NCBI GenBank assembly: GCA_949788275.1
Contig: OX460916.1
Coordinates: 1,550,001-1,614,000, forward strand
DNA: 64,000 nt
Source: Weeksellaceae bacterium
Lineage (GTDB): Bacteria > Bacteroidota > Bacteroidia > Flavobacteriales > Weeksellaceae
Direction: 5' to 3'
Shown here: positions 5,958 through 64,000 of the stretch, one piece after another
Position numbering within the stretch: position 1 is the first letter of the stretch
Layout: each line of letters opens with the position of its first letter
Made by a program: the position numbers and the translations under genes
Notes under the pieces: generated by a model
What the model saw: the letters and a program-made list of their open reading frames with translations, nothing else
What the model was told of the DNA's origin: nothing
Databases searched by the model: none

Positions 5958-8279
5958 ATGATGGAAACATATTTGGAAAAATTGAACGAACCTCAACGGC
6001 TTGCCGTTGAAGCAACAGAAGGCCCTGTTATGGTAATTGCAGGTGCTGGTTCTGGTAAAACCCGTGTTTTAACGTATCGAATTGCCCATTTATTACATAA
6101 AGGGGTTGATGCATTTAACATACTTTCACTGACATTTACCAACAAAGCGGCGCGAGAAATGAAAGAACGTGTCGGCTTGGTGGTTGGAGAATCGAACGCA
6201 AAGAGTTTGTGGATGGGAACCTTTCACTCGGTTTTTGCCCGAATTTTACGAACAGAAGCTCCCCTATTAGGCTATCCGTCTAATTTTACGATTTACGATC
6301 AACAAGATGCAGTTTCTGTAATGACGAAAGTGATTAATGAAATGAATTTGGATAAGGATTTATACAAACCCAAACAGATTCTAAATCGCATCTCCCAATT
6401 TAAAAATAACCTGATTACCGTCCATGCTTACCACAATAACCAAGCGTTAATCGAGGCGGACAATGAAGCGATGAAACCCCGTATAGGCGATATTTATCGC
6501 GCATATGTCGATCGTTGTTTTAAATCTGGTGCCATGGATTTTGACGATTTATTATTGCGTACCAACGAAATATTAACCCGTTTCCCTGAAGTTTTAGCCA
6601 AATACCAAGAACGATTTAAATACATTATGGTTGATGAGTACCAAGATACCAACCATTCCCAATACTTAATTGTGAAGGCATTGGCATCGCGTTACGAAAA
6701 CCTTTGTGTTGTTGGTGATGATGCCCAGTCCATTTATGCATTCCGCGGAGCGAATATTCGTAATATTTTGTCGTTTAAACAAGATTATCCGGATGCCAAA
6801 CTCCATCCCCTTGAACAAAACTACCGTTCAACTCAAATGATCGTTGAAGCGGCCAATCAAATTATAGCTCATAACCAAGATCAACTCGAAAAAAACGTAT
6901 GGACAGCCAACGATGAAGGTGAAAAAATTGCCGTTTACCGTGGTTTATCCGATGCTGATGAGGCGCGTTTTATCGCTTCACAGATTTGGGAAAAACAGAT
7001 TAGTGAGCATTTACAACCCAAAGAATTTGCCATTTTATACCGTACCAATGCTCAATCGAGAGCTTTGGAGGAAGCCCTTCGTAAAAAAGGAATTTCGTAC
7101 CGTGTATTTGGAGGAACGTCGTTTTACCAGCGAAAAGAGATTAAGGATATGGTGGCTTATATGCGGCTATTAATTAATCAGAACGACGAAGAAGCGCTTT
7201 TACGTGTGATTAATTACCCTGGTCGTGGAATAGGACAAACCACTATTTCGAAGCTGCTTATTGCGGCTGATCAGCAATCGACCCCTCTATTCAATATCGT
7301 TGAAAACATTTCGATGTTTGCACCGAATATTGGTATTAATGCAGGAACATCGAATAAACTGAACGATTTCGCCTTGATGATAAAGCGTTTTCAAGTGATG
7401 TTAAAAACCCATGATGTTTACGAAGTAACCATGGAAATGGCGAAAACCACCCAATTATTGAATACCCTAAAAGAGGATTCTACGCCTGAAGGTATTTCTC
7501 GCTTAGAAAACGTTCAAGAATTATTAAACTCGATTCAAGGTTATGTGGAAGAACAAAATCAGTTGGAAAATGGTGATTCATCTTTAGGAGGTTTCTTGGA
7601 AAACATTGCTTTAGCGACCGATGCCGATAACGAAGATGAAGACGACAATAAAGTGAATCTAATGACCGTTCACCTAGCGAAAGGTCTAGAATTCCCGATT
7701 GTATTTATCGCTGGATTGGAAGAGAATTTATTTCCATCGATGATGAGCATGAATACCCGAGCCGAATTAGAAGAAGAAAGGCGTTTATTTTATGTAGCGC
7801 TTACCCGAGCCGAACGACAGGCCTATTTTACGTATTCCGTGTCCCGTTTTCGCTGGGGAAAAATTATTGATTGTGAACCATCGCGATTTTTAGAAGAAGT
7901 CGACGATAAATTTTTGGATTGGAAGAATGTTTCTATACCTACCGCTCGAAACAACAGTGGTCTTTCTGCGGATGTTTTTGGAGATGCACCGACCTACCCA
8001 CGACCAAAATCGGTGGCGAGGGAACGTCCACAACAACCAATGCGTCAATCTCCAATGCAGGCCAAACCCAATTTAAAGCCCGTTCAAGGCACAGCACCGA
8101 GACAAGCAGGAGCCGCCATTCAATTAACCGTTGGACAAGTGGTTCTTCATGATCGTTTTGGACGCGGTGTTGTGAAAGAACTTCAAGGAGCACCGACCGA
8201 TATGAAAGCGATTATTCATTTTGATCATGCCGGAGAAAAGAAACTTTTACTCAATTTTGCGAAATTAAAAATCGTATAA
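5958..8279 (+). CDS. pcrA: ATP-dependent DNA helicase PcrA/UvrD (SF1A)
   Basis: A 3'-5' helicase for nucleotide excision repair, mismatch repair and removal of RecA filaments. All SF1A motifs are visible: Walker A AGAGSGKT at 28-35, Walker B VDEYQDTN, motif III GDDAQSIYAFRGA, motif IV QNYRS, motif V MTVHLAKGLEF and motif VI RRLFYVALTRA. The C-terminus (from about residue 715) carries the Tudor-like VLHDRFGRGVV module that binds RNA polymerase in PcrA. The length of 773 residues is normal. Two ATGs (5958, 5961) are possible starts; the promoter box sits almost on top of them. Confidence 0.93.
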   Translation: MMETYLEKLNEPQRLAVEATEGPVMVIAGAGSGKTRVLTYRIAHLLHKGVDAFNILSLTFTNKAAREMKERVGLVVGESNAKSLWMGTFHSVFARILRTEAPLLGYPSNFTIYDQQDAVSVMTKVINEMNLDKDLYKPKQILNRISQFKNNLITVHAYHNNQALIEADNEAMKPRIGDIYRAYVDRCFKSGAMDFDDLLLRTNEILTRFPEVLAKYQERFKYIMVDEYQDTNHSQYLIVKALASRYENLCVVGDDAQSIYAFRGANIRNILSFKQDYPDAKLHPLEQNYRSTQMIVEAANQIIAHNQDQLEKNVWTANDEGEKIAVYRGLSDADEARFIASQIWEKQISEHLQPKEFAILYRTNAQSRALEEALRKKGISYRVFGGTSFYQRKEIKDMVAYMRLLINQNDEEALLRVINYPGRGIGQTTISKLLIAADQQSTPLFNIVENISMFAPNIGINAGTSNKLNDFALMIKRFQVMLKTHDVYEVTMEMAKTTQLLNTLKEDSTPEGISRLENVQELLNSIQGYVEEQNQLENGDSSLGGFLENIALATDADNEDEDDNKVNLMTVHLAKGLEFPIVFIAGLEENLFPSMMSMNTRAELEEERRLFYVALTRAERQAYFTYSVSRFRWGKIIDCEPSRFLEEVDDKFLDWKNVSIPTARNNSGLSADVFGDAPTYPRPKSVARERPQQPMRQSPMQAKPNLKPVQGTAPRQAGAAIQLTVGQVVLHDRFGRGVVKELQGAPTDMKAIIHFDHAGEKKLLLNFAKLKIV

Positions 8280-53958: not shown

Positions 53959-54075
53959 TGTAAAAATTTTGTTTAAATTTAAGACATCTGATTGTTTTTG
54001 TCTCTATAAAACCTAAAGATGTATAAAAAATCGATATTTATTCTATTTTATATTAAAACTAACCGCTCTAGGCGT

Positions 54076-54083
54076 TATATTTG
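54076..54083 (+). promoter_or_regulatory. -7 promoter box of the amino acid permease gene
   Basis: TATATTTG, 20 nt upstream of the ATG at 54104. Confidence 0.55.
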
Positions 54084-54103
54084 CCGGGTTTTGTACTTAA
54101 ATT

Positions 54104-56008
54104 ATGTCACAGTTATTCAGAAAAAAGACGGTAGAATCTATTCTAGCGGAATCCAGCAAAAGTCAAACATCACTTCATAAGACACTTGGCGTACGAGACC
54201 TTACGGGGTTTGGTATAGCAGCTATTGTTGGTGCAGGAATTTTCAGCACCATTGGTCGAGCGAGTTACGAGGGTGGACCTGCTGTTGTATTTTTATTCCT
54301 ATTTACAGCCATTGCATGTGCTTTTACGGCATTTGCGTATGCCGAATTTGCATCGTTAGTGCCTGTATCTGGTAGTGCATACACCTACAGCTACGTGGCA
54401 TTTGGTGAATTGTTCGCTTGGGTTATTGGCTGGGCTTTGATTATGGAATATGCGATAGGGAACATTGTTTTGGCTATTTCGTGGAGTGATTATTTTACGA
54501 CGCTCCTCGCAGGGATGGGCATGCATCTGCCCGAATGGATGACGATGGATTATTTTACCGCGAAAGCGGGTTTTGAAACCATTACCAATCAGTTAGCCAA
54601 AGGGCAAACGCTTGATCAATTAGCGACGTCTAATTTTGCACAAGAAATTCCGAAATATTTAGCTTTTAAAAATGCACCGCAGATCGGTTTTAATCTGGTG
54701 GTTGATTTACCGGCTTTGATGATTACTTTTTTAATTACCGCCTTGGTTTATCGTGGTATTAATGAAACGCGAAAAGCGAGTAATGCCATGGTTGTTTTAA
54801 AAATTGCCGTTGTTCTATTGGTGATTATTGTAGGGGCTTTTTATGTAAACCCGGATAACTGGAATCCTTTTGCGCCCAATGGCATCTCGGGTGTATTAGC
54901 TGGTGTGAGTTCGGTTTTCTTTGCTTACATTGGTTTTGATGCGATTAGTACAACCGCTGAGGAATGTAAAAATCCGAAGCGTGATTTACCAAGGGGAATC
55001 TTTTTATCGATTATTATTTGTACGGTTTTATATATTCTTATCGCCCTGGTAATTACAGGGATTGTGCATTATTCGGAATTGAATGTGGGTGATCCGCTAG
55101 CTTATGTGTTTGATAAAGTAGAAGATTTACGTTGGTTATCAGGTGTTGTGGCTATTTCGGCTGTTATTGCCATGGCGAGTGTTTTTATTGTGTTTCAGAT
55201 TGGTCAACCCCGTATTTGGATGACGATGTCGCGAGATGGTTTGTTACCAAAACGTTTTTCACGGGTTCACCCTAAATTTAAAACACCTTCTTTTGCCACC
55301 ATATTTACGGGTTTTGTGGTGGGGTTTCCGATCTTATTTACCGACTTACAATTAATGGTTGATGCCTGTTCTATTGGGACATTGTTTGCCTTTGTGTTGG
55401 TTTGTGCCGCAGTTATTCGCATGGATGGAAATCCGAATGCCATTAGAGGAAGTTTTAAAACGCCTTTTGTTGACGCAAAAATTGTGATGCCATTGATAAC
55501 GGTTGCCCTGGTGGTTCTATGTTTTACGACTTTAAAAGATGACACCAAAGCGTTTTTTGGAAATGCCCCGCAACCGATGCCCGTTGAAACGTTTGTCTCT
55601 TCTTTAACGACCAAAGAACTAAAAGATTCTTACACAACACTTTCCGCTTTAACGGGTGGTGAAATCAATCATTTAGATGATTATTTAGCCCGTTTAACAC
55701 CAGAAGAATACAAAACGACTCTTCAGCAATTACCGGTTTATGAAGATAAGAAAATGGAAAAAGGCTGGGATGTGTTTAAACATAAAATACCGTTATATAT
55801 TTTTATGGTGATTTATTTCGGAATGATTATTCGATCGTTCTTTAAACGCACATCATTTATCCCCTTAGCTGGAATGCTATGTTGTTTCTATATGATGGCT
55901 CAATTGGGTTTAAAAAACTGGTTTATTTTCTTAATTTGGTTGTTAATTGGTTTGGTGGTTTACTTTATTTATGGGTATAGACATAGTAAGTTGAAGTATA
56001 AAATATAA
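54104..56008 (+). CDS. APC-superfamily amino acid permease (cationic amino acid transporter type)
   Basis: A 634-residue inner-membrane transporter with about 14 helices. The first helix carries GFGIAAIVGAGIFSTIG, the APC unwound-helix motif, and helix 6 has AYIGFDAISTTAEECKNP, typical of the CAT/YfnA branch. Residues about 485-565 form a hydrophilic insertion before the last helices, longer than in many bacterial homologues. The substrate is probably a cationic or neutral amino acid. It has its own promoter and ends at a very long perfect hairpin. Confidence 0.9.
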   Translation: MSQLFRKKTVESILAESSKSQTSLHKTLGVRDLTGFGIAAIVGAGIFSTIGRASYEGGPAVVFLFLFTAIACAFTAFAYAEFASLVPVSGSAYTYSYVAFGELFAWVIGWALIMEYAIGNIVLAISWSDYFTTLLAGMGMHLPEWMTMDYFTAKAGFETITNQLAKGQTLDQLATSNFAQEIPKYLAFKNAPQIGFNLVVDLPALMITFLITALVYRGINETRKASNAMVVLKIAVVLLVIIVGAFYVNPDNWNPFAPNGISGVLAGVSSVFFAYIGFDAISTTAEECKNPKRDLPRGIFLSIIICTVLYILIALVITGIVHYSELNVGDPLAYVFDKVEDLRWLSGVVAISAVIAMASVFIVFQIGQPRIWMTMSRDGLLPKRFSRVHPKFKTPSFATIFTGFVVGFPILFTDLQLMVDACSIGTLFAFVLVCAAVIRMDGNPNAIRGSFKTPFVDAKIVMPLITVALVVLCFTTLKDDTKAFFGNAPQPMPVETFVSSLTTKELKDSYTTLSALTGGEINHLDDYLARLTPEEYKTTLQQLPVYEDKKMEKGWDVFKHKIPLYIFMVIYFGMIIRSFFKRTSFIPLAGMLCCFYMMAQLGLKNWFIFLIWLLIGLVVYFIYGYRHSKLKYKI

Positions 56009-56018
56009 CTATATTATT

Positions 56019-56080
56019 ATTTAGCGAGCAAAAAGAGCTGTTCCATTACGATTTGGAACAGCTCTTTTTGCTCGCTAAAT
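56019..56080. terminator. 27-bp perfect hairpin after the permease gene
   Basis: The arms 56019-56045 and 56054-56080 pair without mismatch around an 8-nt loop. It is probably a bidirectional terminator for the permease and the convergent HTH gene, but it is unusually long. Confidence 0.7.
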
Positions 56081-56198
56081 ACGCTAACTTTAGAAACGTA
56101 TAAAATACTTTATGAAATTAATTTTTTTCCGTTTTTCAAGCATTTTTTAATTTCAAGTTAGAAACCTTAAAAATAAAACAGGGTTTATCCTCAAAATT

Positions 56199-56528
56199 CT
56201 ATCCTCCAAAAAATATTTTTTTCCACTTATGAACTGTGTTACGGCTAATATTAAAGTGGGTAGCCAATTGGCTGTTATTGAGATCATTTTTCAGTTGATA
56301 ATGAAGGATTTCTAGAATAGTCTCTTCATCATAAGCTTTGAACTTTTGATTGAGAGAAATAGGTTTTTTTTCCTTGTTGAGTAGAAGATCATTTAAATAA
56401 ATTACATCTAAATCGGTCCAGAACACTTTATTGAAAAAAGGCGTACAAAGCGCTGCTTTATCGGGATATTTACGTTGAATAAAATCCTTGTAGATTAGCT
56501 TGTAGTTTGGCTTATTTTTTATATTCAT
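56199..56528 (-). CDS. Small HTH protein of the exported-protein locus
   Basis: A 109-residue protein from the start at 56528 (MNIKNKPNYKLIYKDFIQRKYP); a longer frame from 56564 would run back into a terminator hairpin and is rejected. The C-terminal half is a helix-turn-helix (ILEILHYQLKNDLNNSQLATHFNISRNTVHKWKKIF) like that of transposase-type or Psq-type DNA-binding proteins. The same family occurs, in my recollection, next to AQVGINT exported proteins in Chryseobacterium-type genomes. It may regulate this locus; this is inference. Confidence 0.7.
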   Translation of the reverse strand: MNIKNKPNYKLIYKDFIQRKYPDKAALCTPFFNKVFWTDLDVIYLNDLLLNKEKKPISLNQKFKAYDEETILEILHYQLKNDLNNSQLATHFNISRNTVHKWKKIFFGG

Positions 56529-56541
56529 AGCTACAATGATT

Positions 56542-56572
56542 AAAAAGCCAACTTTTATAGGCAAAAGTTGGC
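56542..56572 (-). terminator. Terminator of the exported-protein operon, just upstream of the HTH gene
   Basis: On the minus strand the stem gccaactttt/aaaagttggc is followed by a T run. It ends 14 nt before the HTH start at 56528, so any transcript of that gene from upstream must read through it. Confidence 0.7.
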
Positions 56573-56723
56573 AAAGGTTTAGGTTGGGTTAGTAAGGTTA
56601 AAGTCGGTTCATTATTTTGAATGATTATAAATTCACTTATAAAGGTTTAGGTTGGCCTATATACAGTGTATAATCACATTAATTGATTTGCAATGGGATT
56701 TACTTTACGAATTCATCTTTGGT
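56573..56723. promoter_or_regulatory. Leader with a direct repeat and a palindromic candidate operator
   Basis: A 15-bp direct repeat aaaggtttaggttgg occurs at 56574-56588 and 56641-56655. A 13-nt palindrome tatacagtgtata lies at 56660-56672. Both are candidate protein-binding sites between the exported gene and the HTH gene. Confidence 0.4.
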
Positions 56724-57419
56724 CTAAAAAATAAGAACAGAAATTCTCAATTCAGAATAATCCCCCCTTGTAAAAGGGTCATTAACAACTCTTAAATCAT
56801 CATTATCTCCATTCGTATAATTTGCTCTTGATTTTATGTTATAGGTAACATTTAAATCATTTGTATCTGCAAATAAGAACTCTGTATAAGTTATAGGAAT
56901 AATGATAAATTCTTGAGTAAAACCACTTTCATTTGTTAACTGTGCAGTATTAGAAATCTTAATGTCATTTTCTTTAAAAATACCTGCAGAAATTCCGAAA
57001 AGAGGGTTTTTATCCTTTGTTTGTTGAGCACAAATTTGACCTGTAATGAATATCATCGCTTTCTTTCCTTTAGGAATTGAGACCGTTTGCGAGAGATTAG
57101 GAATCTGTAACCAGGGTTTGTTAAATCCAGAAGGTAAAAAAATGGGTGTAGTTTGTCTTTTAAAAAAAAGATTCGGGCTTAATACATTTTCAATACCTGT
57201 CCAGCTTGGCGATTTTCCGGGTCCAGATGATTGTAAAATTTGCCCAGCAATACCTGGGTTACCTTTCGTTGATTCATTTCCGCCTACGTTTAAACTGTTA
57301 TCAAGGGTCGTTTCCCCATGAACATGTAAAGCTGCCTGAGGACTATTGGTATTAATACCAACCTGAGCTGATACATTAATAATACTAAATAGAAGTCCTA
57401 AAAAATAGTTTTTTTTCAT
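56724..57419 (-). CDS. Exported AQVGINT-type protein B
   Basis: A 231-residue exported protein with a signal peptide (KKNYFLGLLFSIINVSAQ) followed by VGINTNSPQAALHVHGETTL, the usual start of Flavobacteriia surface proteins of this group. The remainder is beta-rich with no recognised domain (LQIPNLSQTVSIPKGKKAMI, FAVTYNIKS-type strands) and ends GDYSELRISVLIF. It is 16 bp behind the 150-residue HTH gene, so the two are co-transcribed, and it is followed by a terminator. It is probably surface-exposed; function unknown. Confidence 0.7.
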   Translation of the reverse strand: MKKNYFLGLLFSIINVSAQVGINTNSPQAALHVHGETTLDNSLNVGGNESTKGNPGIAGQILQSSGPGKSPSWTGIENVLSPNLFFKRQTTPIFLPSGFNKPWLQIPNLSQTVSIPKGKKAMIFITGQICAQQTKDKNPLFGISAGIFKENDIKISNTAQLTNESGFTQEFIIIPITYTEFLFADTNDLNVTYNIKSRANYTNGDNDDLRVVNDPFTRGDYSELRISVLIF

Positions 57420-57435
57420 AAAATATAGTTAATAA

Positions 57436-57885
57436 TTAATTTGGTTCATTATTTTTAGAATGCTTGTAGATCCACTTATAAAGGGTTGTTCTAGGAATTC
57501 TATACTCTTCTATAATTTGTTTTTTAGTCATAACTTCAAAATGCAATTGTTCTAAAATAAAATCAATCAATTCCTGGGTATAGATATTCTTTTTAAACTG
57601 AGGCAGTGTAGATTTTTCTGTTTCTTTTGAACAGTTATTCTGCGTACTTTTAGGCGAATACAGAATGAGATGTTGGGAGTAGAATCGAAAAAAATCGTAT
57701 TCTAGGAGCTTACTCCATCTCAAAAGAATTTCACTATCTAAGCTGTTCATTTTATACATTGACAGAATTTCTTTTTCCGTGTTTTTAAAAAAAGCGCTTA
57801 TACGGATCATGTCAATTTCACGCTCAATCACTTTTTGCTCGATGATTCGTCCTATATGAATTACTTTAAAATTAGGTTGTTGCAT
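57436..57885 (-). CDS. HTH protein (transposase-like) in the exported-protein operon
   Basis: A 149-residue protein from the start at 57885 (MQQPNFKVIHIGRIIEQKVI). The N-terminal half (IDMIRISAFFKNTEKEILSM, SLDSEILLRWSKLLEYDFFR) looks like a lambda-repressor-type helical DNA-binding unit. The C-terminal part has a second HTH (MTKKQIIEEYRIPRTTLYKWI). I remember close relatives in Chryseobacterium-type genomes annotated loosely as transposase. There is no catalytic domain, so a regulatory role is more likely. It sits between two exported-protein genes. Confidence 0.7.
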   Translation of the reverse strand: MQQPNFKVIHIGRIIEQKVIEREIDMIRISAFFKNTEKEILSMYKMNSLDSEILLRWSKLLEYDFFRFYSQHLILYSPKSTQNNCSKETEKSTLPQFKKNIYTQELIDFILEQLHFEVMTKKQIIEEYRIPRTTLYKWIYKHSKNNEPN

Positions 57886-57944
57886 TGATTTAGGCTTTAA
57901 ATTTGACAATTCTTAATAAAACTTAAAATAGAATTTGAGATGGA

Positions 57945-58664
57945 CTATAACTTTTTAATCGAAAGTTGATACCCCTTGGTGGCATACGCATTATTTGTTA
58001 CTGAAATTTTTTTCACAGGATTTCCTTGTAAAGACGAACCACTTGCACTACTTCTGTTGAATCGGATAATTATTAATGTATTCGCTTCAAGTGCCTTTAT
58101 CGTGCTTGGAATATTATGGGAATGGTTTTGAACACCCCAATTTTGCGTAAATACCGGTCGCGATCCTGTAATTGATGTCTACGTTGCGCCATTATTGGTA
58201 CTAATATCAATCGCTACGACTATAAACGTATTATTATTTAACTCGGTGTCGATAAGAAAGTTGATAAATCCCGTAATTTCATAAATTCCTTTTTTATTGA
58301 CTTTAAAAAAATTACCCGATTGAGTGACATCAATTGAATTTTGTTGAATGTCTTCTGGTTTCACATACAATTGAAATGTAGTGCCATCATTAAAAATATT
58401 CGCTGTCGGCACAACGACTTGTCGATCGCCTTCAGCATAGAAAACGGCTGTTGTTAAGTTAGTCCCTGTATCTTCTTTTAAACCGACGAGACCATTTTGG
58501 TCAACATACAATGGACTAAGTGTGCCTTTTAGATAATTGGTCTTTCTAATGGTGGTTTCACCATTTACATCCAAGGAAGTTCGCGGTTCATTAGTATTAA
58601 TACCAACCTGAGCTGATAAGCTGAGAATAGAAAATAGTAATCCTAAAAAATAATAGTTTTTCAT
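57945..58664 (-). pseudogene. Exported AQVGINT-type protein A, split by an amber codon
   Basis: The ATG at 58664 opens a frame with signal peptide KNYYFLGLLFSILSLSAQ and VGINTNEPRTSLDVNGETTI. It reads to a TAG at 58179-58181 (161 residues), then continues in the same frame TSITGSRPVFTQNWGVQNHS to SVTNNAYATKGYQLSIKKL and a TAG at 57945. The whole frame would give 238 residues, similar to protein B. The short product is the literal reading; one base change would restore the full protein. It is the gene nearest the invertible segment. Confidence 0.7.
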
Positions 58665-58983
58665 AAAATTAAGTTAATGGTTAAACGTTTTCTTGTTATT
58701 GATATAATGTTTATTAAAAAATCTAATTGTTTATTATTTTCACCCCTTATACGAAGTTGATAAAAAACGATATGGACGACTTTCTCATCAGCACCAAAAA
58801 AATCGTATTGCCTTTATAAACTAGGCTCTCCGTAAAGAACAATTTTTACTTGTTACTGGAAAATTTTCGGTGAATATCAACCTCGTTATTGATAAAATTT
58901 GAATATTTATCAAGGGGAGGGGCTATCTTTTCATTGACTTTTAAAATTATTTTTTTCCGTTTATATTTAAATAATATGCCTGT
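58665..58983. other. Leader region between exported protein A and the invertible segment
   Basis: No coding frame is seen. I looked for TAnnTTTG on the minus strand and found none, so the exported-protein operon has no visible promoter of its own here. Confidence 0.45.
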
Positions 58984-59197
58984 GTAGTCCTACTTAGACT
59001 ACTTAATAATTTTATTCATTAAGTGCTAAGCATCTTTACCCTTTCATTACGTTGTATTTATATGTTTTTAATTATTTATAAATTGAATAAACTTTACAAA
59101 CAGGGCAATAAATAAAGATAAAATAGTATCTATCAGATACTTGTTTATTGAAAAAAAAAACTATATTTGTAGTAAATCATGGTCTAAGTAGGACTAC
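58984..59197. repeat. Candidate invertible promoter segment bounded by 16-bp inverted repeats
   Basis: gtagtcctacttagac at 58984-58999 and its exact reverse complement at 59182-59197 enclose 182 bp. The enclosed part contains a TATATTTG promoter box at 59162-59169 pointing right, and lies 46 bp from a tyrosine recombinase gene. This matches the layout of Bacteroides phase-variable promoters flipped by a neighbouring tyrosine recombinase. Confidence 0.65.
59141..59169 (+). promoter_or_regulatory. Promoter inside the invertible segment
   Basis: TTG at 59141-59143, an 18-nt spacer and TATATTTG at 59162-59169 match the Bacteroidota -33/-7 pattern. The box overlaps an imperfect palindrome ACTATATTTGTAGT (59160-59173). 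Confidence 0.6.
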
Positions 59198-59205
59198 TAT
59201 TTTTC

Positions 59206-59219
59206 ACTACATTTGTAGT
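59206..59219 (+). promoter_or_regulatory. Palindrome overlapping a second -7 box
   Basis: ACTACATTTGTAGT has arms ACTACA/TGTAGT and contains TACATTTG (59208-59215). It repeats the sequence at 59160-59173 outside the inverted repeat, 46 bp downstream, 25 bp before the recombinase ATG. Confidence 0.5.
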
Positions 59220-59243
59220 AAATATATCCTTAAAACTTCCTTA

Positions 59244-60473
59244 ATGACTTTTGATTTTTATTTATCATCTCACCCTACTCAAAAAAATATTCATCTTTGC
59301 TTAACGACACTTACGAAAGTTTATAATTTAAAAACTTCTCTGAAGATATCACTGAATGAGTGGGATAAAGATAAGCAGCAACCTAAAAACATCTATATCA
59401 AGAAGTTTAAGGAGATTAATCAACGCCTCATTCAAATTAAGCTTAATCTTTTAGAACATATTGAGGAAAAGGAAAATAACGAAGACCTTTTTAATCGGAC
59501 TAGTTTAATGGAAAGAATTAATAAAATTTGTTTAAATAAGGGGGATGTTTTACCAGAAAATTCATTTTTACACTATATAAAAGTTTATTTATCATCTAGA
59601 AAAGATCTGATAACTCATTCAACCTATAAACGATACAAAGTATTTTACCATTTACTTGAGCGTTTAGAAGGTTATTTAACACGTCGTTTATATATAGAGC
59701 ACATCAACAGTGATTTCATCAATAACTTTCTTCAATTTGCTCGATTAGAAGAATATAGTGAAAATACCATTTACAGAACCATTCATTTTGTAAAAACGAT
59801 TTTGAATTTTGCTGAACGTAAAGGTATACGAACAGGGGTTGGACAATTGGAGATTAGGCGCGGTAAACAACATAAAACAGTGATTTCCTTGTCGGAATGC
59901 GAAATTAAGCAGATTAAGAACACCAAAGTTCCCCAAGCTTTAGAAAACTCAAAGCAATGGTTAATCATTAGTTGTTATACGGGTCAGCGTTTTTCCGATT
60001 TTATTCAGTTCAAGGTGAACAAGCTGCAAGAGATTAATGGAAAAAAATGCATTGAATTTACCCAAGAGAAAACTGGAAAAGAGATTATACTCCCCTTACA
60101 TCCAGCTGTATTGGATGTATTAAAAGAAAATAAGAATGTATTCCCCGAGGTTGTAGAGCTTCATACGTACAATCTAGAAATAAAGAAAATATCTAAATTA
60201 GCGAACTTAAATAACACGATTAAAGCTCGGAAACGCATCGGACATCGAAGCAAGGAGTTAGCCCTTGAAAAGTGGGAACTAATTAGTAGTCATATCGGTA
60301 GAAGAAGTTTTGCGAGTAATTTTTATGGAAAAATACCAACACCATTGTTAATGGATGCAACAGGTCATAGCACTGAATTAATGTTTTTGAAATATGTTAA
60401 TCCCAGTAATACCGAACGAATCGTTAGTCTAAGTAACTATTTCGATGACATCTATTTACAAACACCCAATTAA
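59244..60473 (+). CDS. Tyrosine-type site-specific recombinase
   Basis: The start at 59244 (MTFDFYLSSHPTQKNIHLCL) gives 409 residues; an upstream TTG at 59148 lies inside the candidate switch and is rejected. The N-terminal arm-binding domain and a helical core-binding domain (about 115-215) precede the catalytic domain. In this numbering the catalytic residues are R249 (YTGQRFSDF), K276 (QEKTGK), H350 and R353 (SSHIGRRSF), H375 (TGHSTE) and Y384 (FLKYVN), all present. It is of the Bacteroidota type that includes DNA invertases of phase-variable surface loci. No phage or conjugation genes are nearby. Confidence 0.9.
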   Translation: MTFDFYLSSHPTQKNIHLCLTTLTKVYNLKTSLKISLNEWDKDKQQPKNIYIKKFKEINQRLIQIKLNLLEHIEEKENNEDLFNRTSLMERINKICLNKGDVLPENSFLHYIKVYLSSRKDLITHSTYKRYKVFYHLLERLEGYLTRRLYIEHINSDFINNFLQFARLEEYSENTIYRTIHFVKTILNFAERKGIRTGVGQLEIRRGKQHKTVISLSECEIKQIKNTKVPQALENSKQWLIISCYTGQRFSDFIQFKVNKLQEINGKKCIEFTQEKTGKEIILPLHPAVLDVLKENKNVFPEVVELHTYNLEIKKISKLANLNNTIKARKRIGHRSKELALEKWELISSHIGRRSFASNFYGKIPTPLLMDATGHSTELMFLKYVNPSNTERIVSLSNYFDDIYLQTPN

Positions 60474-60713
60474 TTTAGTTTTAACCTAGAACGGGAAAAC
60501 TGAAGCTATTTTCAACAACACAAGGAAATATTATTATTCAATAAACCACTATCGTTAGATAAATTCCTTATTGTCTTTATTGAGTTGAAACGTTCCCATG
60601 AAAATAATCTTGAACTCGTTCCTACATTAAGACCAGCGTTTTAAAAAAAAAATCAACCATGTGTTACTCGGCTTAAGTCAATAAGGAATATCTATTGTTC
60701 ACTGATATGTACA
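60474..60713. other. Intergenic, no gene seen
   Basis: AT-rich spacer between the recombinase and the convergent Cys-rich lipoprotein gene. No second copy of the 16-bp inverted repeat is seen here. Confidence 0.35.
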
Positions 60714-61253
60714 TCAGTTATTTAGCTTGGCGAGTAGATCGGTAAAATCATCTTTGTAGGTGACAAGCATACAATTTTCATTGTTGACTGTACACGAAGT
60801 ACACGTAAGTTCTTCGCGGTTGGGGAGGCAACCATGGGTTGAAATACAATCGCTACTCACACACCCTATTTGATCGATATACAGATATGTCAATCCTCGA
60901 ATGGAATCGGTAACCGCAGTAAGAAGGGTATTCACCGTATAATTGTTACTATAGGTCTTTAAGATATATTCGCCTTCGGTATACACAAAGACCGATTGCG
61001 CATAGCGATCAGTTTCAGCAATCAATCGGTTGACATAGCCCTGAATAACTTCACTGATTTCGAGTTGATCGATTAAAAAATCGTAGTTTCCTTGTTGATT
61101 CACTACACCAATTCTTTTGGATTGGTGAACGTTATTACTTTCTGAATGAAGGGTGTTTTCTTTTACGTTAGAGGACGGATTACACTGTAGAAATACAAGC
61201 ATACACAGGCTAAAGAAGCTGCGGATTAGAATTTTATGGACTAGCGTTTTCAT
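60714..61253 (-). CDS. Putative Cys-rich lipoprotein
   Basis: From the start at 61253 (MKTLVHKILIRSFFSLCMLV) this 179-residue protein has a lipoprotein signal (LVFLQCNPSS, Cys at about 24). The middle part is a mixed helix-strand region (QLEISEVIQGYVNRLIAETD). The C-terminal part is rich in cysteine (GCVSSDCISTHGCLP and LTCTSCTVNNENC), suggesting disulfides or metal binding. I do not recognise a family. It stands alone between the recombinase and a structured repeat. Confidence 0.6.
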   Translation of the reverse strand: MKTLVHKILIRSFFSLCMLVFLQCNPSSNVKENTLHSESNNVHQSKRIGVVNQQGNYDFLIDQLEISEVIQGYVNRLIAETDRYAQSVFVYTEGEYILKTYSNNYTVNTLLTAVTDSIRGLTYLYIDQIGCVSSDCISTHGCLPNREELTCTSCTVNNENCMLVTYKDDFTDLLAKLNN

Positions 61254-61357
61254 TTGCAATGGATTTTAGTGTTTTACGCTTTAATTTACAAAACAAGGAA
61301 TAGCTATAAAATAATTGCCTCCTTTTTTTTTAAAAACCCTTCTACTTCATCTGTTTT

Positions 61358-61449
61358 GCGTTAGGGATTGCAGCATTTGTTTGAGCTTTTTGGTGGAGTG
61401 AAACGCAACCGAAAAGCGAGTGCGGAAAGCCCGCCCGAAGGGAACGCCC
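61358..61449 (+). repeat. Dispersed structured repeat, copy 7
   Basis: Core from gcgttagggattgcagc to gaagggaacgccc, almost identical to copies 1 and 3, with inner hairpin gctttttggt/accgaaaagc. No 5' hairpin is visible. Confidence 0.85.
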
Positions 61450-61656
61450 AAAAGAAAAATCATACAGCGATTTTCTTAATTCATGAGGTACATGAGGTTC
61501 TTTTTTAAGATGATTCTTGTTTACGGCCTAGGTATAAATGCTCTTGCGAGTTGGGAATTGCGGTTTAAGAGCAATGAAATGAGGTTTAGGCTATAAAATG
61601 CCAAGGATTTGGGTTAAAATAGCGGCAATAAAGTTTATATATTAGATTACAAATTT

Positions 61657-61664
61657 TACCTTTG
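61657..61664 (+). promoter_or_regulatory. -7 promoter box of aspS
   Basis: TACCTTTG, 20 nt upstream of the ATG at 61685. Confidence 0.55.
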
Positions 61665-61684
61665 CAGGATTAAAACAACGACCA

Positions 61685-63442
61685 ATGTTTAGAACTCATA
61701 CTTGTGGTGAATTAACACAAGCCAACGTGAATGAAAAAGTAACTTTAAGCGGTTGGGTATCGACCCTACGCGATAAAGGTTTTATGATGTGGATTGATGT
61801 AAGAGACCGCTACGGGATTACACAAATTATTCTGGATGAAGACAGAACCACAAAAGAATTGTTTGATACCGCCCGCCAATTAGGACGTGAGTATGTGATT
61901 CAGGTAACTGGAACGGTGATTGAGCGTACGTCTAAAAACCCCAATATACCAACAGGAGATATTGAGATTTTAGCTGAAAGCGTGACGATTTTAAACGAAT
62001 CGGCTTTACCACCGTTTACCATTGAAGATCAGACCGATGGTGGGGAGGATATTCGTATGAAATACCGTTACTTAGACATTCGTCGTAACCCCGTTAAAAA
62101 CAAGTTAATTTTTCGTAGTAAAGTTGCGCAAGCTGTTCGAAATTACCTTTCAGCAGAAGAGTTTATTGAGGTTGAAACGCCTGTATTAATTAAATCGACT
62201 CCGGAAGGGGCCCGCGATTTCGTGGTGCCTTCGCGCATGAACCCAGGTGAATTTTATGCTTTACCTCAATCGCCACAAACGTTTAAACAGTTGTTGATGA
62301 TTGGAGGGATGGATCGTTATTTTCAGATTGTGAAGTGTTTCCGCGATGAGGATTTACGCGCCGACCGACAGCCAGAGTTTACGCAGATTGACTGTGAAAT
62401 GGCCTTTGTGGAGCAAGAAGACATCATGCATGTTTTTGAAGGACTGTCAAAGCATTTACTAAAAGAGTTTAGAGGATTGGAGTTTGGTGATTTTCCGCGT
62501 ATGACGTATGCTGATGCGATGTCTACCTACGGGAATGACAAACCCGATATTCGTTTTGAAATGAAGTTTGGTGAGATTACAGATTTGGCCAAAGGAAAAG
62601 ATTTTAAGATTTTTGATGAACAAGAATTAATTGTAGGTATAGCCGCCCAAGGGTGTAATGGGTATACCCGTAAAGATATTGATAAATTAATCGATTGGGT
62701 TAAACGTCCTCAGGTTGGTGCTACAGGCCTTGTTTGGGTACGTTGCAATGAAGATGGTACGTTTAAATCTTCGGTTGATAAATTCTACAGTGAAGAAGAT
62801 TTAGCCGCATGGGCAGAGCGTATGCAAGCGAAGCCAGGTGATTTATTATTAGTGATGTCTGGTGAAGCGGATAAAGTACGCGGTCAATTATCGGCTTTAC
62901 GTATGGAATTAGCTGAGCGCTTAGGGTTACGTAACCCGGATGTATTTGCACCGCTATGGGTTGTAGACTTTCCTTTATTGGAATGGGATGAAGATTCAGG
63001 TCGTTTTCATGCGATGCACCATCCATTTACATCGCCTAAACCCGAGGATATGGGTAAAATTGATACTGCTCCAGGCGAAGTACGGGCCAATGCGTATGAT
63101 TTGGTCTTGAATGGAAATGAAATTGGTGGAGGTTCTATTCGTATCTTCAACAAAGATACCCAAGCCAAGATGTTTGAATTACTTGGTTTTACACCAGAAC
63201 AGGCTGAGGCACAATTTGGATTTTTAATGAATGCGTTTAAATATGGAGCGCCACCACATGGTGGTTTAGCTTTTGGATTTGACCGTTTTGTATCGATTTT
63301 AGATGGATCTGAAACCATTCGTGATTATATTGCTTTCCCAAAAAACAACTCGGGTCGTGATGTAATGATTGATGCGCCATCACCGATTGATCCAACACAA
63401 ATGACGGAGTTATGCATTGCTTCTACCGTAGAAAAAGCTTAA
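61685..63442 (+). CDS. aspS: Aspartate-tRNA ligase
   Basis: Charges tRNA-Asp with aspartate. The 585 residues have the bacterial layout: an N-terminal OB fold for the anticodon ([21 protein letters not shown]), the class II catalytic core with motif 1 ([18 protein letters not shown]), motif 2 ([18 protein letters not shown]), the GAD-type insertion (about 285-420), and motif 3 ([14 protein letters not shown]). Asn or His residues that would separate discriminating from non-discriminating forms were not assessed. It is monocistronic with its own promoter and terminator. Confidence 0.97.
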
Positions 63443-63464
63443 CATAAGCACCCTATAAAAAACT

Positions 63465-63495
63465 AAAAAACCACTCGTTCTGAGTGGTTTTTTTT
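63465..63495. terminator. Terminator between aspS and the cytochrome c gene
   Basis: Stem aaaaaccactc/gagtggttttt with a 5-nt loop, flanked by A and T runs, between convergent genes. Confidence 0.85.
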
Positions 63496-63514
63496 ATGCC
63501 TTTTGGAGAATTAT

Positions 63515-64000
63515 TTATTTTTGTTTCCCGACCATTTGTTGCTCTATTTCAAGAACACCTTGTTGAGTGAGTGGTGCCCCTACTCTTTTTTCAATTTCTG
63601 GCTCGGTTTCACCATTATGGCACGTATAACAGGTAACCGCTTTTACACTTGCCGGATTCTCTTTGTTCTGCCAGCCAAAGTAGGTGGTATTAATCTCTTT
63701 GGTCATGGTCATCATATGACGAGCAATCTCTTTTTCTTGTTTATCGTCTTTGGAAAAATCTAATTCATTGGTTTTTGGGTCTGCGCTATGGCAAAAGCTG
63801 CATTTAACACCTAATGCTGTATTAAATTCGCGCATAATCCCTTTTAATTCTTCATCGGAAATCGTGTTGGGAAGTATTTTTAAATTCTTCCATTCGCTTC
63901 GTTCCAAGGCTCTACCTTCATCTACTTTTTCAGATGGGTGAGTGAATGAAAATCCAATAGCAGATAATCCAATAACGCTAAGTAAAATAAGTCGTTTCTT
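63515..64000 (-). CDS. Diheme c-type cytochrome (5' end outside window)
   Basis: The frame stays open to the window edge. It reads KKRLILLSVIGLSAIGFSFT, a signal peptide lacking only its first residue or two, then the mature part from HPSEKVDEGRALERSEWKN. Two heme-binding motifs are present: VKCSFCHSAD and VTCYTCHNG. The spacing and the NLKILPNTISDEELKGIMREFNTALGVKC stretch recall the photosynthetic-reaction-center cytochrome c subunit-like proteins common in Bacteroidota. It is periplasmic and probably carries electrons. An internal TTG start at 63907 is rejected because it removes the signal peptide. Confidence 0.85.
   Translation of the reverse strand, partial: KKRLILLSVIGLSAIGFSFTHPSEKVDEGRALERSEWKNLKILPNTISDEELKGIMREFNTALGVKCSFCHSADPKTNELDFSKDDKQEKEIARHMMTMTKEINTTYFGWQNKENPASVKAVTCYTCHNGETEPEIEKRVGAPLTQQGVLEIEQQMVGKQK

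What the first reader, a model, noticed from the sequence alone, without database searches (positions are those of the whole stretch)
58984..59197. Candidate invertible promoter switching between a recombinase and an exported-protein operon
A perfect 16-bp inverted repeat (58984-58999 and 59182-59197) encloses 182 bp with a good promoter (TTG at 59141, TATATTTG at 59162) now pointing at a tyrosine recombinase whose catalytic residues are all present. On the other side, 320 bp away, lies the minus-strand operon of two AQVGINT exported proteins and two HTH proteins, for which I find no other TAnnTTTG box. Inversion would move the box to 59012-59019 on the minus strand, driving that operon. Bacteroides fragilis surface loci are controlled this way by adjacent tyrosine or serine recombinases. 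The combination with AQVGINT/HTH genes is not one I know as described.
Basis: partly seen in the sequence, partly recalled or inferred. Interest (0 to 1): 0.88.

Follow-up and report, generated by a model that had tools for sequence, protein, structure and literature searches.

The report
Recombinase-linked invertible promoter for exported proteins
A 182-base piece of DNA that carries a promoter appears able to flip over, turning a set of exported proteins on or off, and the same kind of switch recurs in dozens of related bacteria with a matching recombinase.

Summary
Relatives turn the guess into a well-supported family. Of 67 related recombinase loci, 64 have inverted arms just upstream, with a shared core TAGTC-N7-GACTA. 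N7 varies between loci but matches within a locus (59 of 62 by a motif-only choice), as a crossover region must. Of 88 switches the promoter faces away from the exported operon in 76 and towards it in 4; 8 are undetermined. Site pairs occurred in 36 of 320 family genomes, all among the 60 with the recombinase. Two corrections: the recombinase probably has its own fixed promoter just outside the segment, so this is an ON/OFF switch for the operon rather than an either/or choice; and the exported/HTH operon type also exists without a switch. Here the switch is OFF and the first exported ORF has an in-frame stop. Inversion in a living population was not shown. It is an apparently undescribed family of a known kind of system.

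The parts
58984..58999 (+). left inverted-repeat arm; core TAGTC-CTACTTA-GACTA at 58985-59001
59182..59197 (-). right inverted-repeat arm; same N7 spacer, inner half-site one base off the consensus
59000..59181 (.). invertible segment (182 bp), now in the OFF orientation for the exported operon
59141..59169 (+). invertible promoter: TTG (59141-59143), 18 bp, TATATTTG (59162-59169)
   Evidence: box would lie at 59012-59019 minus after inversion
59208..59215 (+). TACATTTG box outside the segment, likely fixed promoter of the recombinase
   Evidence: 58 of 64 loci have a strict or near-consensus box here
59244..60473 (+). tyrosine recombinase, 409 aa
58179..58664 (-). first exported QVGINT-type ORF, 161 aa, ends at an in-frame stop
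57436..57885 (-). HTH protein A (149 aa)
56724..57419 (-). second exported QVGINT-type protein, 231 aa
56199..56528 (-). HTH protein B (109 aa)
56018..56081 (.). strong hairpin, likely two-way terminator that ends the operon
   Evidence: -48 and -47.3 kcal/mol, z about -12 on both strands

Best explanation
This is a phase-variation switch. The tyrosine recombinase at 59244-60473 recognises the TAGTC/GACTA half-sites in the two arms and exchanges strands within the seven-base spacer CTACTTA, turning the 182-bp segment round. In the present orientation its promoter faces the recombinase and the exported operon is silent (OFF); after inversion the promoter faces the minus-strand operon of exported proteins and HTH proteins (ON). 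The recombinase has a fixed promoter of its own outside the right arm, so it is available in both states. Shown by sequence: arms, promoter motif, recombinase, conservation, spacer matching, both orientations among relatives. Inferred: which bases the enzyme binds, that inversion happens in this strain, that the promoters are active, and that the exported proteins act at the surface.
For: 64 of 67 recombinase loci, from 45 genomes, have inverted arms directly upstream. Choosing arms by the motif alone, N7 is identical in inverted sense in 59 of 62 loci and in direct sense in 0 of 62; 39 distinct N7 occur. The paired-site pattern occurs in 36 of 320 family genomes, all 36 among the 60 with the recombinase; the backward control pattern matched in 59 genomes, of which 15 have the recombinase. 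A TAnnTTTG box sits beside one arm in 80 of 88 switches: 76 OFF, 4 ON; in the ON cases a two-end score is reversed (-16.9 to -34.8), and the G093 segment aligns in part on the minus strand to G152, G171 and G115 (66-88 bp at 73-76%). A box lies outside the right arm in 58 of 64 loci and outside the left arm in 1 of 64. Controls: in 18 distant recombinase loci the longest upstream repeats were 13 bp, A/T-rich and without the motif; order-1 Markov versions of the upstream stretches reached the lowest real score (14) in 26 of 1,300 and 16 in 3 of 1,300.
Against: No reads or second strain were available, so inversion in this organism is not shown. In G000 the right arm departs from the core by one base, the left arm is far from the first ORF (319 bp against a median of 70) and the first ORF has an in-frame stop, so this copy may be partly decayed. 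The promoter motif alone is near chance. Two of the 67 loci have no such repeat and a third is cut by a contig end. In G009 and G182 (C24) the two spacers differ. 8 of 88 switches lack a recognisable box, and one labelled OFF (G146) scores weakly as ON. Chance matches to a pattern of this size are not rare, as the backward control shows.
Confidence: 0.9

Rival explanations
1. Two-output toggle: the invertible promoter is the main promoter of the recombinase in one orientation and of the operon in the other, so that the ON state switches the recombinase off and locks itself.
For: In 54 of 64 recombinase-linked loci the promoter now faces the recombinase. Of the boxes outside the right arm only 24 are strict TAnnTTTG and 34 are TTCG or TTAG variants, so the fixed promoter may be weak.
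Against: A box lies 3-12 nt outside the right arm in 58 of 64 loci. Of 18 switches with no recombinase beside them in the stretch fetched, 17 also face away from the exported gene and 1 is undetermined, so the OFF bias does not need a recombinase target. If OFF drove switching, OFF should be the rarer state (inference), and it is the commoner one.
Confidence: 0.2
2. The switch here is a relic: the recombinase or arms no longer work, or the operon is dead, and the segment is frozen OFF.
For: In-frame stop in the first exported ORF; a 319-bp leader; one base off the core in the right arm.
Against: The recombinase is open with all catalytic residues, the N7 spacers match, and other loci with one or two half-site changes keep matching spacers. 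HTH A, HTH B and the second exported gene are open.
Confidence: 0.25
3. The repeats are operator sites by which the recombinase or an HTH protein controls the promoter, with no inversion.
For: The arms flank a promoter and each arm is itself a partial palindrome (TAGTC-N7-GACTA).
Against: Operators need no spacer that matches within a locus and differs between loci, and four switches have the segment reversed.
Confidence: 0.04
4. The recombinase and arms are the remnant of an integrated mobile element, the arms being attachment sites.
For: The recombinase resembles phage integrases at low identity.
Against: The arms are inverted, mostly 170-203 bp apart, and hold a promoter rather than element genes; the layout is kept across several genera. 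No relative was confirmed in viral contigs, and the 10 phage rows listed of 42 are at 25-28% identity.
Confidence: 0.03

Closest known systems
[quoted passage not shown] Weinacht 2004 and Roche-Hakansson 2007 seen only as reference titles)
   Same: A tyrosine recombinase beside an invertible promoter that controls surface products, also acting on a distant promoter.
   Different: Another bacterial group (recalled); here the arms follow TAGTC-N7-GACTA with spacers that vary between loci, the operons encode QVGINT-type exported proteins and often HTH proteins, and one genome can hold up to 12 site pairs. The arm sequences of Tsr19 were not compared.
B. fragilis Mpi and the capsule promoters (PMC4747536, passages)
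   Same: One enzyme inverting many promoters.
   Different: Mpi is a serine recombinase; seven of its 13 regions are capsule promoters.
Gut invertons, inverton group 145 (PMC11892184, passages)
   Same: Invertons near tyrosine recombinases; recombinases there are generally not placed to be driven by the inverton, group 145 being a possible exception. [quoted passage not shown]
   Different: A defined gut community; words beginning Flavobacteri, Weeksella or Chryseobacterium do not occur in that main text.
FSD adhesin genes of Ornithobacterium hominis with a 'putative phase variation mechanism' (PMC13183296, passages)
   Same: Adhesin-like proteins with suspected phase variation in what that paper treats as the Weeksellaceae.
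   Different: The passages seen do not give the mechanism; no Fibrobacter succinogenes domain was reported among the 7 further exported proteins scanned.

Membership tests
Invertible promoter (inverton) with a local tyrosine recombinase | Inverted repeats flanking a short segment | tested here: met
   64 of 67 relatives
Invertible promoter (inverton) with a local tyrosine recombinase | Outward-facing promoter inside the segment | tested here: met
   motif beside an arm in 80 of 88 switches; activity not tested
Invertible promoter (inverton) with a local tyrosine recombinase | Adjacent tyrosine recombinase with catalytic residues | tested here: met
Invertible promoter (inverton) with a local tyrosine recombinase | Identical crossover region in the two sites | tested here: met
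   G000 yes; 59 of 62 loci
Invertible promoter (inverton) with a local tyrosine recombinase | Both orientations exist | tested here: met
   between species only: 76 OFF, 4 ON, 8 undetermined of 88
Invertible promoter (inverton) with a local tyrosine recombinase | Both orientations within one population, dependent on the recombinase | not testable with these tools
   no reads or sister strains; one genome per species
Mpi-type serine recombinase switch | Serine recombinase | tested here: not met
   Phage_integrase and SAM-like domains, tyrosine type
Tsr19 family of B. fragilis | Sequence kinship of recombinase and arms with Tsr19 | not tested
   Tsr19 sequence was not at hand; Bacteroides, Parabacteroides and Phocaeicola plasmid integrases match at 23-29%

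The most novel reading that the evidence does not exclude
One permissive recombinase can serve many switches in a genome because site pairs carry their own seven-base crossover sequence. The enzyme recognises the shared TAGTC/GACTA half-sites, and strand exchange checks the spacer, so most sites recombine with their own partner rather than with others. G189 has one close recombinase (and one distant one at 34%), 12 site pairs and 9 different spacers, all matched within the pair, although nine of the ten pairs in G187 share one spacer. This would be a natural barcode system that lets a genome run many independent surface switches.
Probability: 0.4. Interest if true: 0.78.

Novelty: new variant of a known kind. 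Interest (0 to 1): 0.62.

Why it matters
It points to a phase-variation system spread over several genera of one bacterial family, OFF in most of the switches examined, that would make exported proteins vary between sister cells. Expression data from laboratory cultures would miss such operons if the cultures are mostly OFF. The matched spacers give a direct test of how one recombinase keeps many switches apart, and the half-site motif gives a search pattern that finds the switches from sequence alone.

Tried and rejected
Searches for the recombinase in genome contigs gave one weak hit, in viral contigs none confirmed, in plasmids and phages only distant relatives; HTH A had no plasmid match; PDB sequences gave none. 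A structure of the second exported protein, folded alone, was unusable (mean pLDDT 38.3). Pfam and NCBIfam gave no family for the window's exported proteins. Rfam over 55900-60700 and a tRNA scan over 54000-64000 found nothing. The idea that the HTH pair belongs to the switch was dropped: HTH A occurs in 12 of 14 genomes of the genus, seven of them without a close recombinase. A first paired pattern with a shorter gap matched only 1 of 14 genus genomes and was replaced. The idea that the present orientation exists to drive the recombinase was weakened by switches without a recombinase neighbour.

Ten paper searches showed no description of such switches in Chryseobacterium, Elizabethkingia, Flavobacterium or Weeksellaceae in what I saw of the held library; most papers listed were seen only as titles and abstract starts, and the two were not opened. 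PMC5903667 (passages) reports an inversion signature in one Flavobacteriia sample without details in those passages. PMC13183296 (passages) mentions a putative phase variation mechanism for adhesin genes of Ornithobacterium hominis without saying which.

Full report
What is there. The window holds a perfect 16-bp inverted repeat at 58984-58999 and 59182-59197 with 182 bp between. The repeat has no further copy with up to two mismatches in the single-contig 3.34-Mb genome, of which the window is C1:1550001-1614000. Order-2 Markov sequences of the window's composition give 0.083 repeats of 16 bp or more per window. Inside lies TTG-18-TATATTTG facing a 409-aa tyrosine recombinase with SAM-like and Phage_integrase domains and R249, K276, H350, R353, H375 and Y384. 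To the left, on the minus strand, lie an exported ORF, HTH A, a second exported protein and HTH B, followed by a strong hairpin at 56018-56081. The promoter motif alone proves little: 8 matches in the window against 5.8 expected. That TAnnTTTG with an upstream TTG is the promoter type of this phylum is recalled knowledge.

Relatives in the genus. The recombinase has matches in 13 of 14 genomes of the genus at E 1e-10; in G002, G004, G009 and G012 there are close ones, mostly 53-65% identical over the matched part. The five close loci L005, L006, L008, L017 and L023 have a perfect repeat of 17-20 bp directly upstream, with different letters but the same frame; L007 (G009) has an imperfect one; copies cut by contig ends could not be judged. 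Of 19 distant loci at hand I tested 18: the longest upstream repeats were 13 bp, A/T-rich and without the motif.

Family survey. A profile of six recombinases (A1) matched 60 of 320 genomes of the family at E 1e-60, in 11 of 33 genera. I fetched 60 loci outside the genus (these are the rows at or below E 4.3e-148 except the contig-end fragment in G165) and used 7 within it, leaving out contig-end fragments in G002 and G012. Of these 67 loci, 64, from 45 genomes, have an inverted repeat directly upstream of the recombinase; two have none and one is cut by a contig end. Some loci are near copies (for example G233 and G234, whose segments are identical), so they are not all independent. At order level, matches at E 1e-100 were found in 17 of 395 sampled genomes, all in the same family; the listing does not show how many of the 395 lie outside it.

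The arm code. Aligned arms give TAGTC-N7-GACTA; positions 3-5 and 13-15 are invariant in the left arms of all 64 loci, and there are 39 different N7. Taking the longest repeat in each locus, N7 is the same in both arms in 62 of 64, against a mean of 2.6 and a maximum of 10 in 10,000 reshufflings; this choice is partly circular. Choosing arms only by the ten fixed bases (one mismatch allowed), 62 of 66 loci had two sites, and N7 matched in inverted sense in 59 and in direct sense in none. This is what strand exchange by a tyrosine recombinase needs, and it is not expected of operators.

Co-occurrence. The paired-site pattern, which does not demand matching N7, occurs in 36 of 320 family genomes, and all 36 are among the 60 recombinase-positive ones. 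The backward control pattern matched in 59 genomes by my count of the listing, 15 of them recombinase-positive, so single chance matches to a pattern of this size are common, but they do not follow the recombinase as strictly. Some genomes have many site pairs: G189 12, G187 10, G012 7, G002 6. G187 has one recombinase match at E 1e-20 and G189 one close match plus a distant one at 34%, all candidates having been scored. In these two genomes N7 matches within the pair in 22 of 22 sites; G189 has 9 different N7, while nine of the ten pairs in G187 share one. So one recombinase seems to serve many sites, partly with private spacers. Action in trans is inferred.

Orientation. I examined 88 switches: 64 beside a recombinase and 24 others from 20 loci. 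Of the 24, 18 have no recombinase beside them in the stretch fetched, 3 lie at contig ends and 3 are beside a cut or broken recombinase (my reading). For G187 and G189 only 5 of 9 and 5 of 11 such further sites were fetched. A TAnnTTTG box near one arm gives 76 OFF, 4 ON and 8 undetermined. A leave-one-out profile of both ends, which includes the box itself, gives the ON cases -16.9 to -34.8 and the OFF cases positive scores except G146 (-4.5). The ON cases are G009, G316, G093 and G293. The G093 segment aligns in part on the minus strand with those of G152, G171 and G115, and in G316, G009 and G293 the palindrome-like end has changed sides too. G009's two arms differ in the spacer and G293's recombinase frame is broken, so these two may be frozen ON. 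Thus inversion has happened in this family; whether it happens in this strain is untested.

What each promoter does. A box stands 3-12 nt outside the right arm in 58 of 64 loci (24 strict TAnnTTTG, 18 with TTCG, 16 with TTAG) and outside the left arm in 1 of 64; in the window it is TACATTTG at 59208-59215. The recombinase therefore probably has a fixed promoter, while the operon relies on the invertible one. The first ORF of at least 95 codons starts within 100 bp of the left arm in 34 of 63 loci and within 400 bp in 46 of 63, 39 of these with a signal-peptide-like start by a crude test. In the window it is 319 bp. Of the 18 switches without a recombinase neighbour 17 are OFF and 1 undetermined, so the OFF bias is not explained by the promoter's use for the recombinase.

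What it controls. HTH A was found in 40 of 67 loci and HTH B in 33 of 67 within the stretch fetched. The exported protein's relatives, many matching only in the N-terminal part, are common: 129 of 320 genomes at E 1e-12. In the genus HTH A occurs in 12 of 14 genomes, four copies in G000, and the other three G000 operons of this type have no site. The switch is thus an addition to some members of a common operon type. Of 17 further proteins from switch loci scanned with Pfam (10, two of them HTH proteins and one HU-like; 7), one has a C-type lectin domain above the curated cut-off (L151) and three have C1q matches just under it (L147, L150, L153), which hints at varied adhesive heads; this is weak.

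State of this copy. It is OFF. The first exported ORF has an in-frame stop at codon 162, the next stop being at codon 240. The right arm departs from the core by one inner base. The recombinase and the other operon genes are open. The switch is probably functional, with some chance that it is a relic.

Comparison. Local and distant promoter inversion by one tyrosine recombinase is known from B. fragilis Tsr19/BF2766 (PMC4747536, passages), and inversions affecting surface proteins are reviewed in PMC12632263 (section 11 and passages). PMC11892184 (passages) notes that recombinases near invertons are mostly not placed to be driven by them, with one group as a possible exception. PMC13183296 (passages) mentions a putative phase variation mechanism for adhesin genes in Ornithobacterium hominis without naming it. 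No description of this family was seen in ten searches of the held library (listed under tried and rejected).

Noticed in passing
window 58179-58664: The first exported ORF ends at an in-frame stop at codon 162; the next stop in that frame is at codon 240.
   Followed up: partly
window 56018-56081: Very strong hairpin between a convergent permease-like gene and the operon, probably a two-way terminator (z about -12 on both strands).
   Followed up: partly
G187 (L143-L147) and G189 (L148-L152): One close recombinase but 10 and 12 site pairs; nine of the ten in G187 share one spacer and look alike, so cross-recombination between them could rearrange the chromosome.
   Followed up: partly
end of the invertible segment away from the promoter, e.g. 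G143, G234: A palindrome-like ATTGATTTGTAAATCAAT element near the arm opposite the promoter (strict form in 10 of 80 such ends, 0 of 80 promoter ends); role unknown, perhaps an accessory-protein site.
   Followed up: partly
between right arm and recombinase start in several loci, e.g. L085, L083: A dyad such as TTGATAATTAA...TTAAATTATCAA just before the recombinase start codon, possibly a regulatory hairpin or operator (seen, not counted).
   Followed up: no
L034 (G002) and L106 (G035): A second matched site pair further along beside another exported gene, without its own recombinase, so successive exported genes could switch separately.
   Followed up: partly
L153 (G293): Switch in the ON orientation beside a broken recombinase, a likely frozen ON state.
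   Followed up: no
L131 and L132 (G223, G219): Segments of 355-356 bp instead of about 190 bp, with no recognisable box near the arms.
   Followed up: no
L151 (G189) 6294-7244: Exported protein of a switch-linked operon with a C-type lectin domain above the Pfam cut-off.
   Followed up: no
L186 (own genome, 1435000-1443000): Another exported/HTH operon without a switch lies beside a gene whose start resembles Cas9 (recalled motif, not searched).
   Followed up: no
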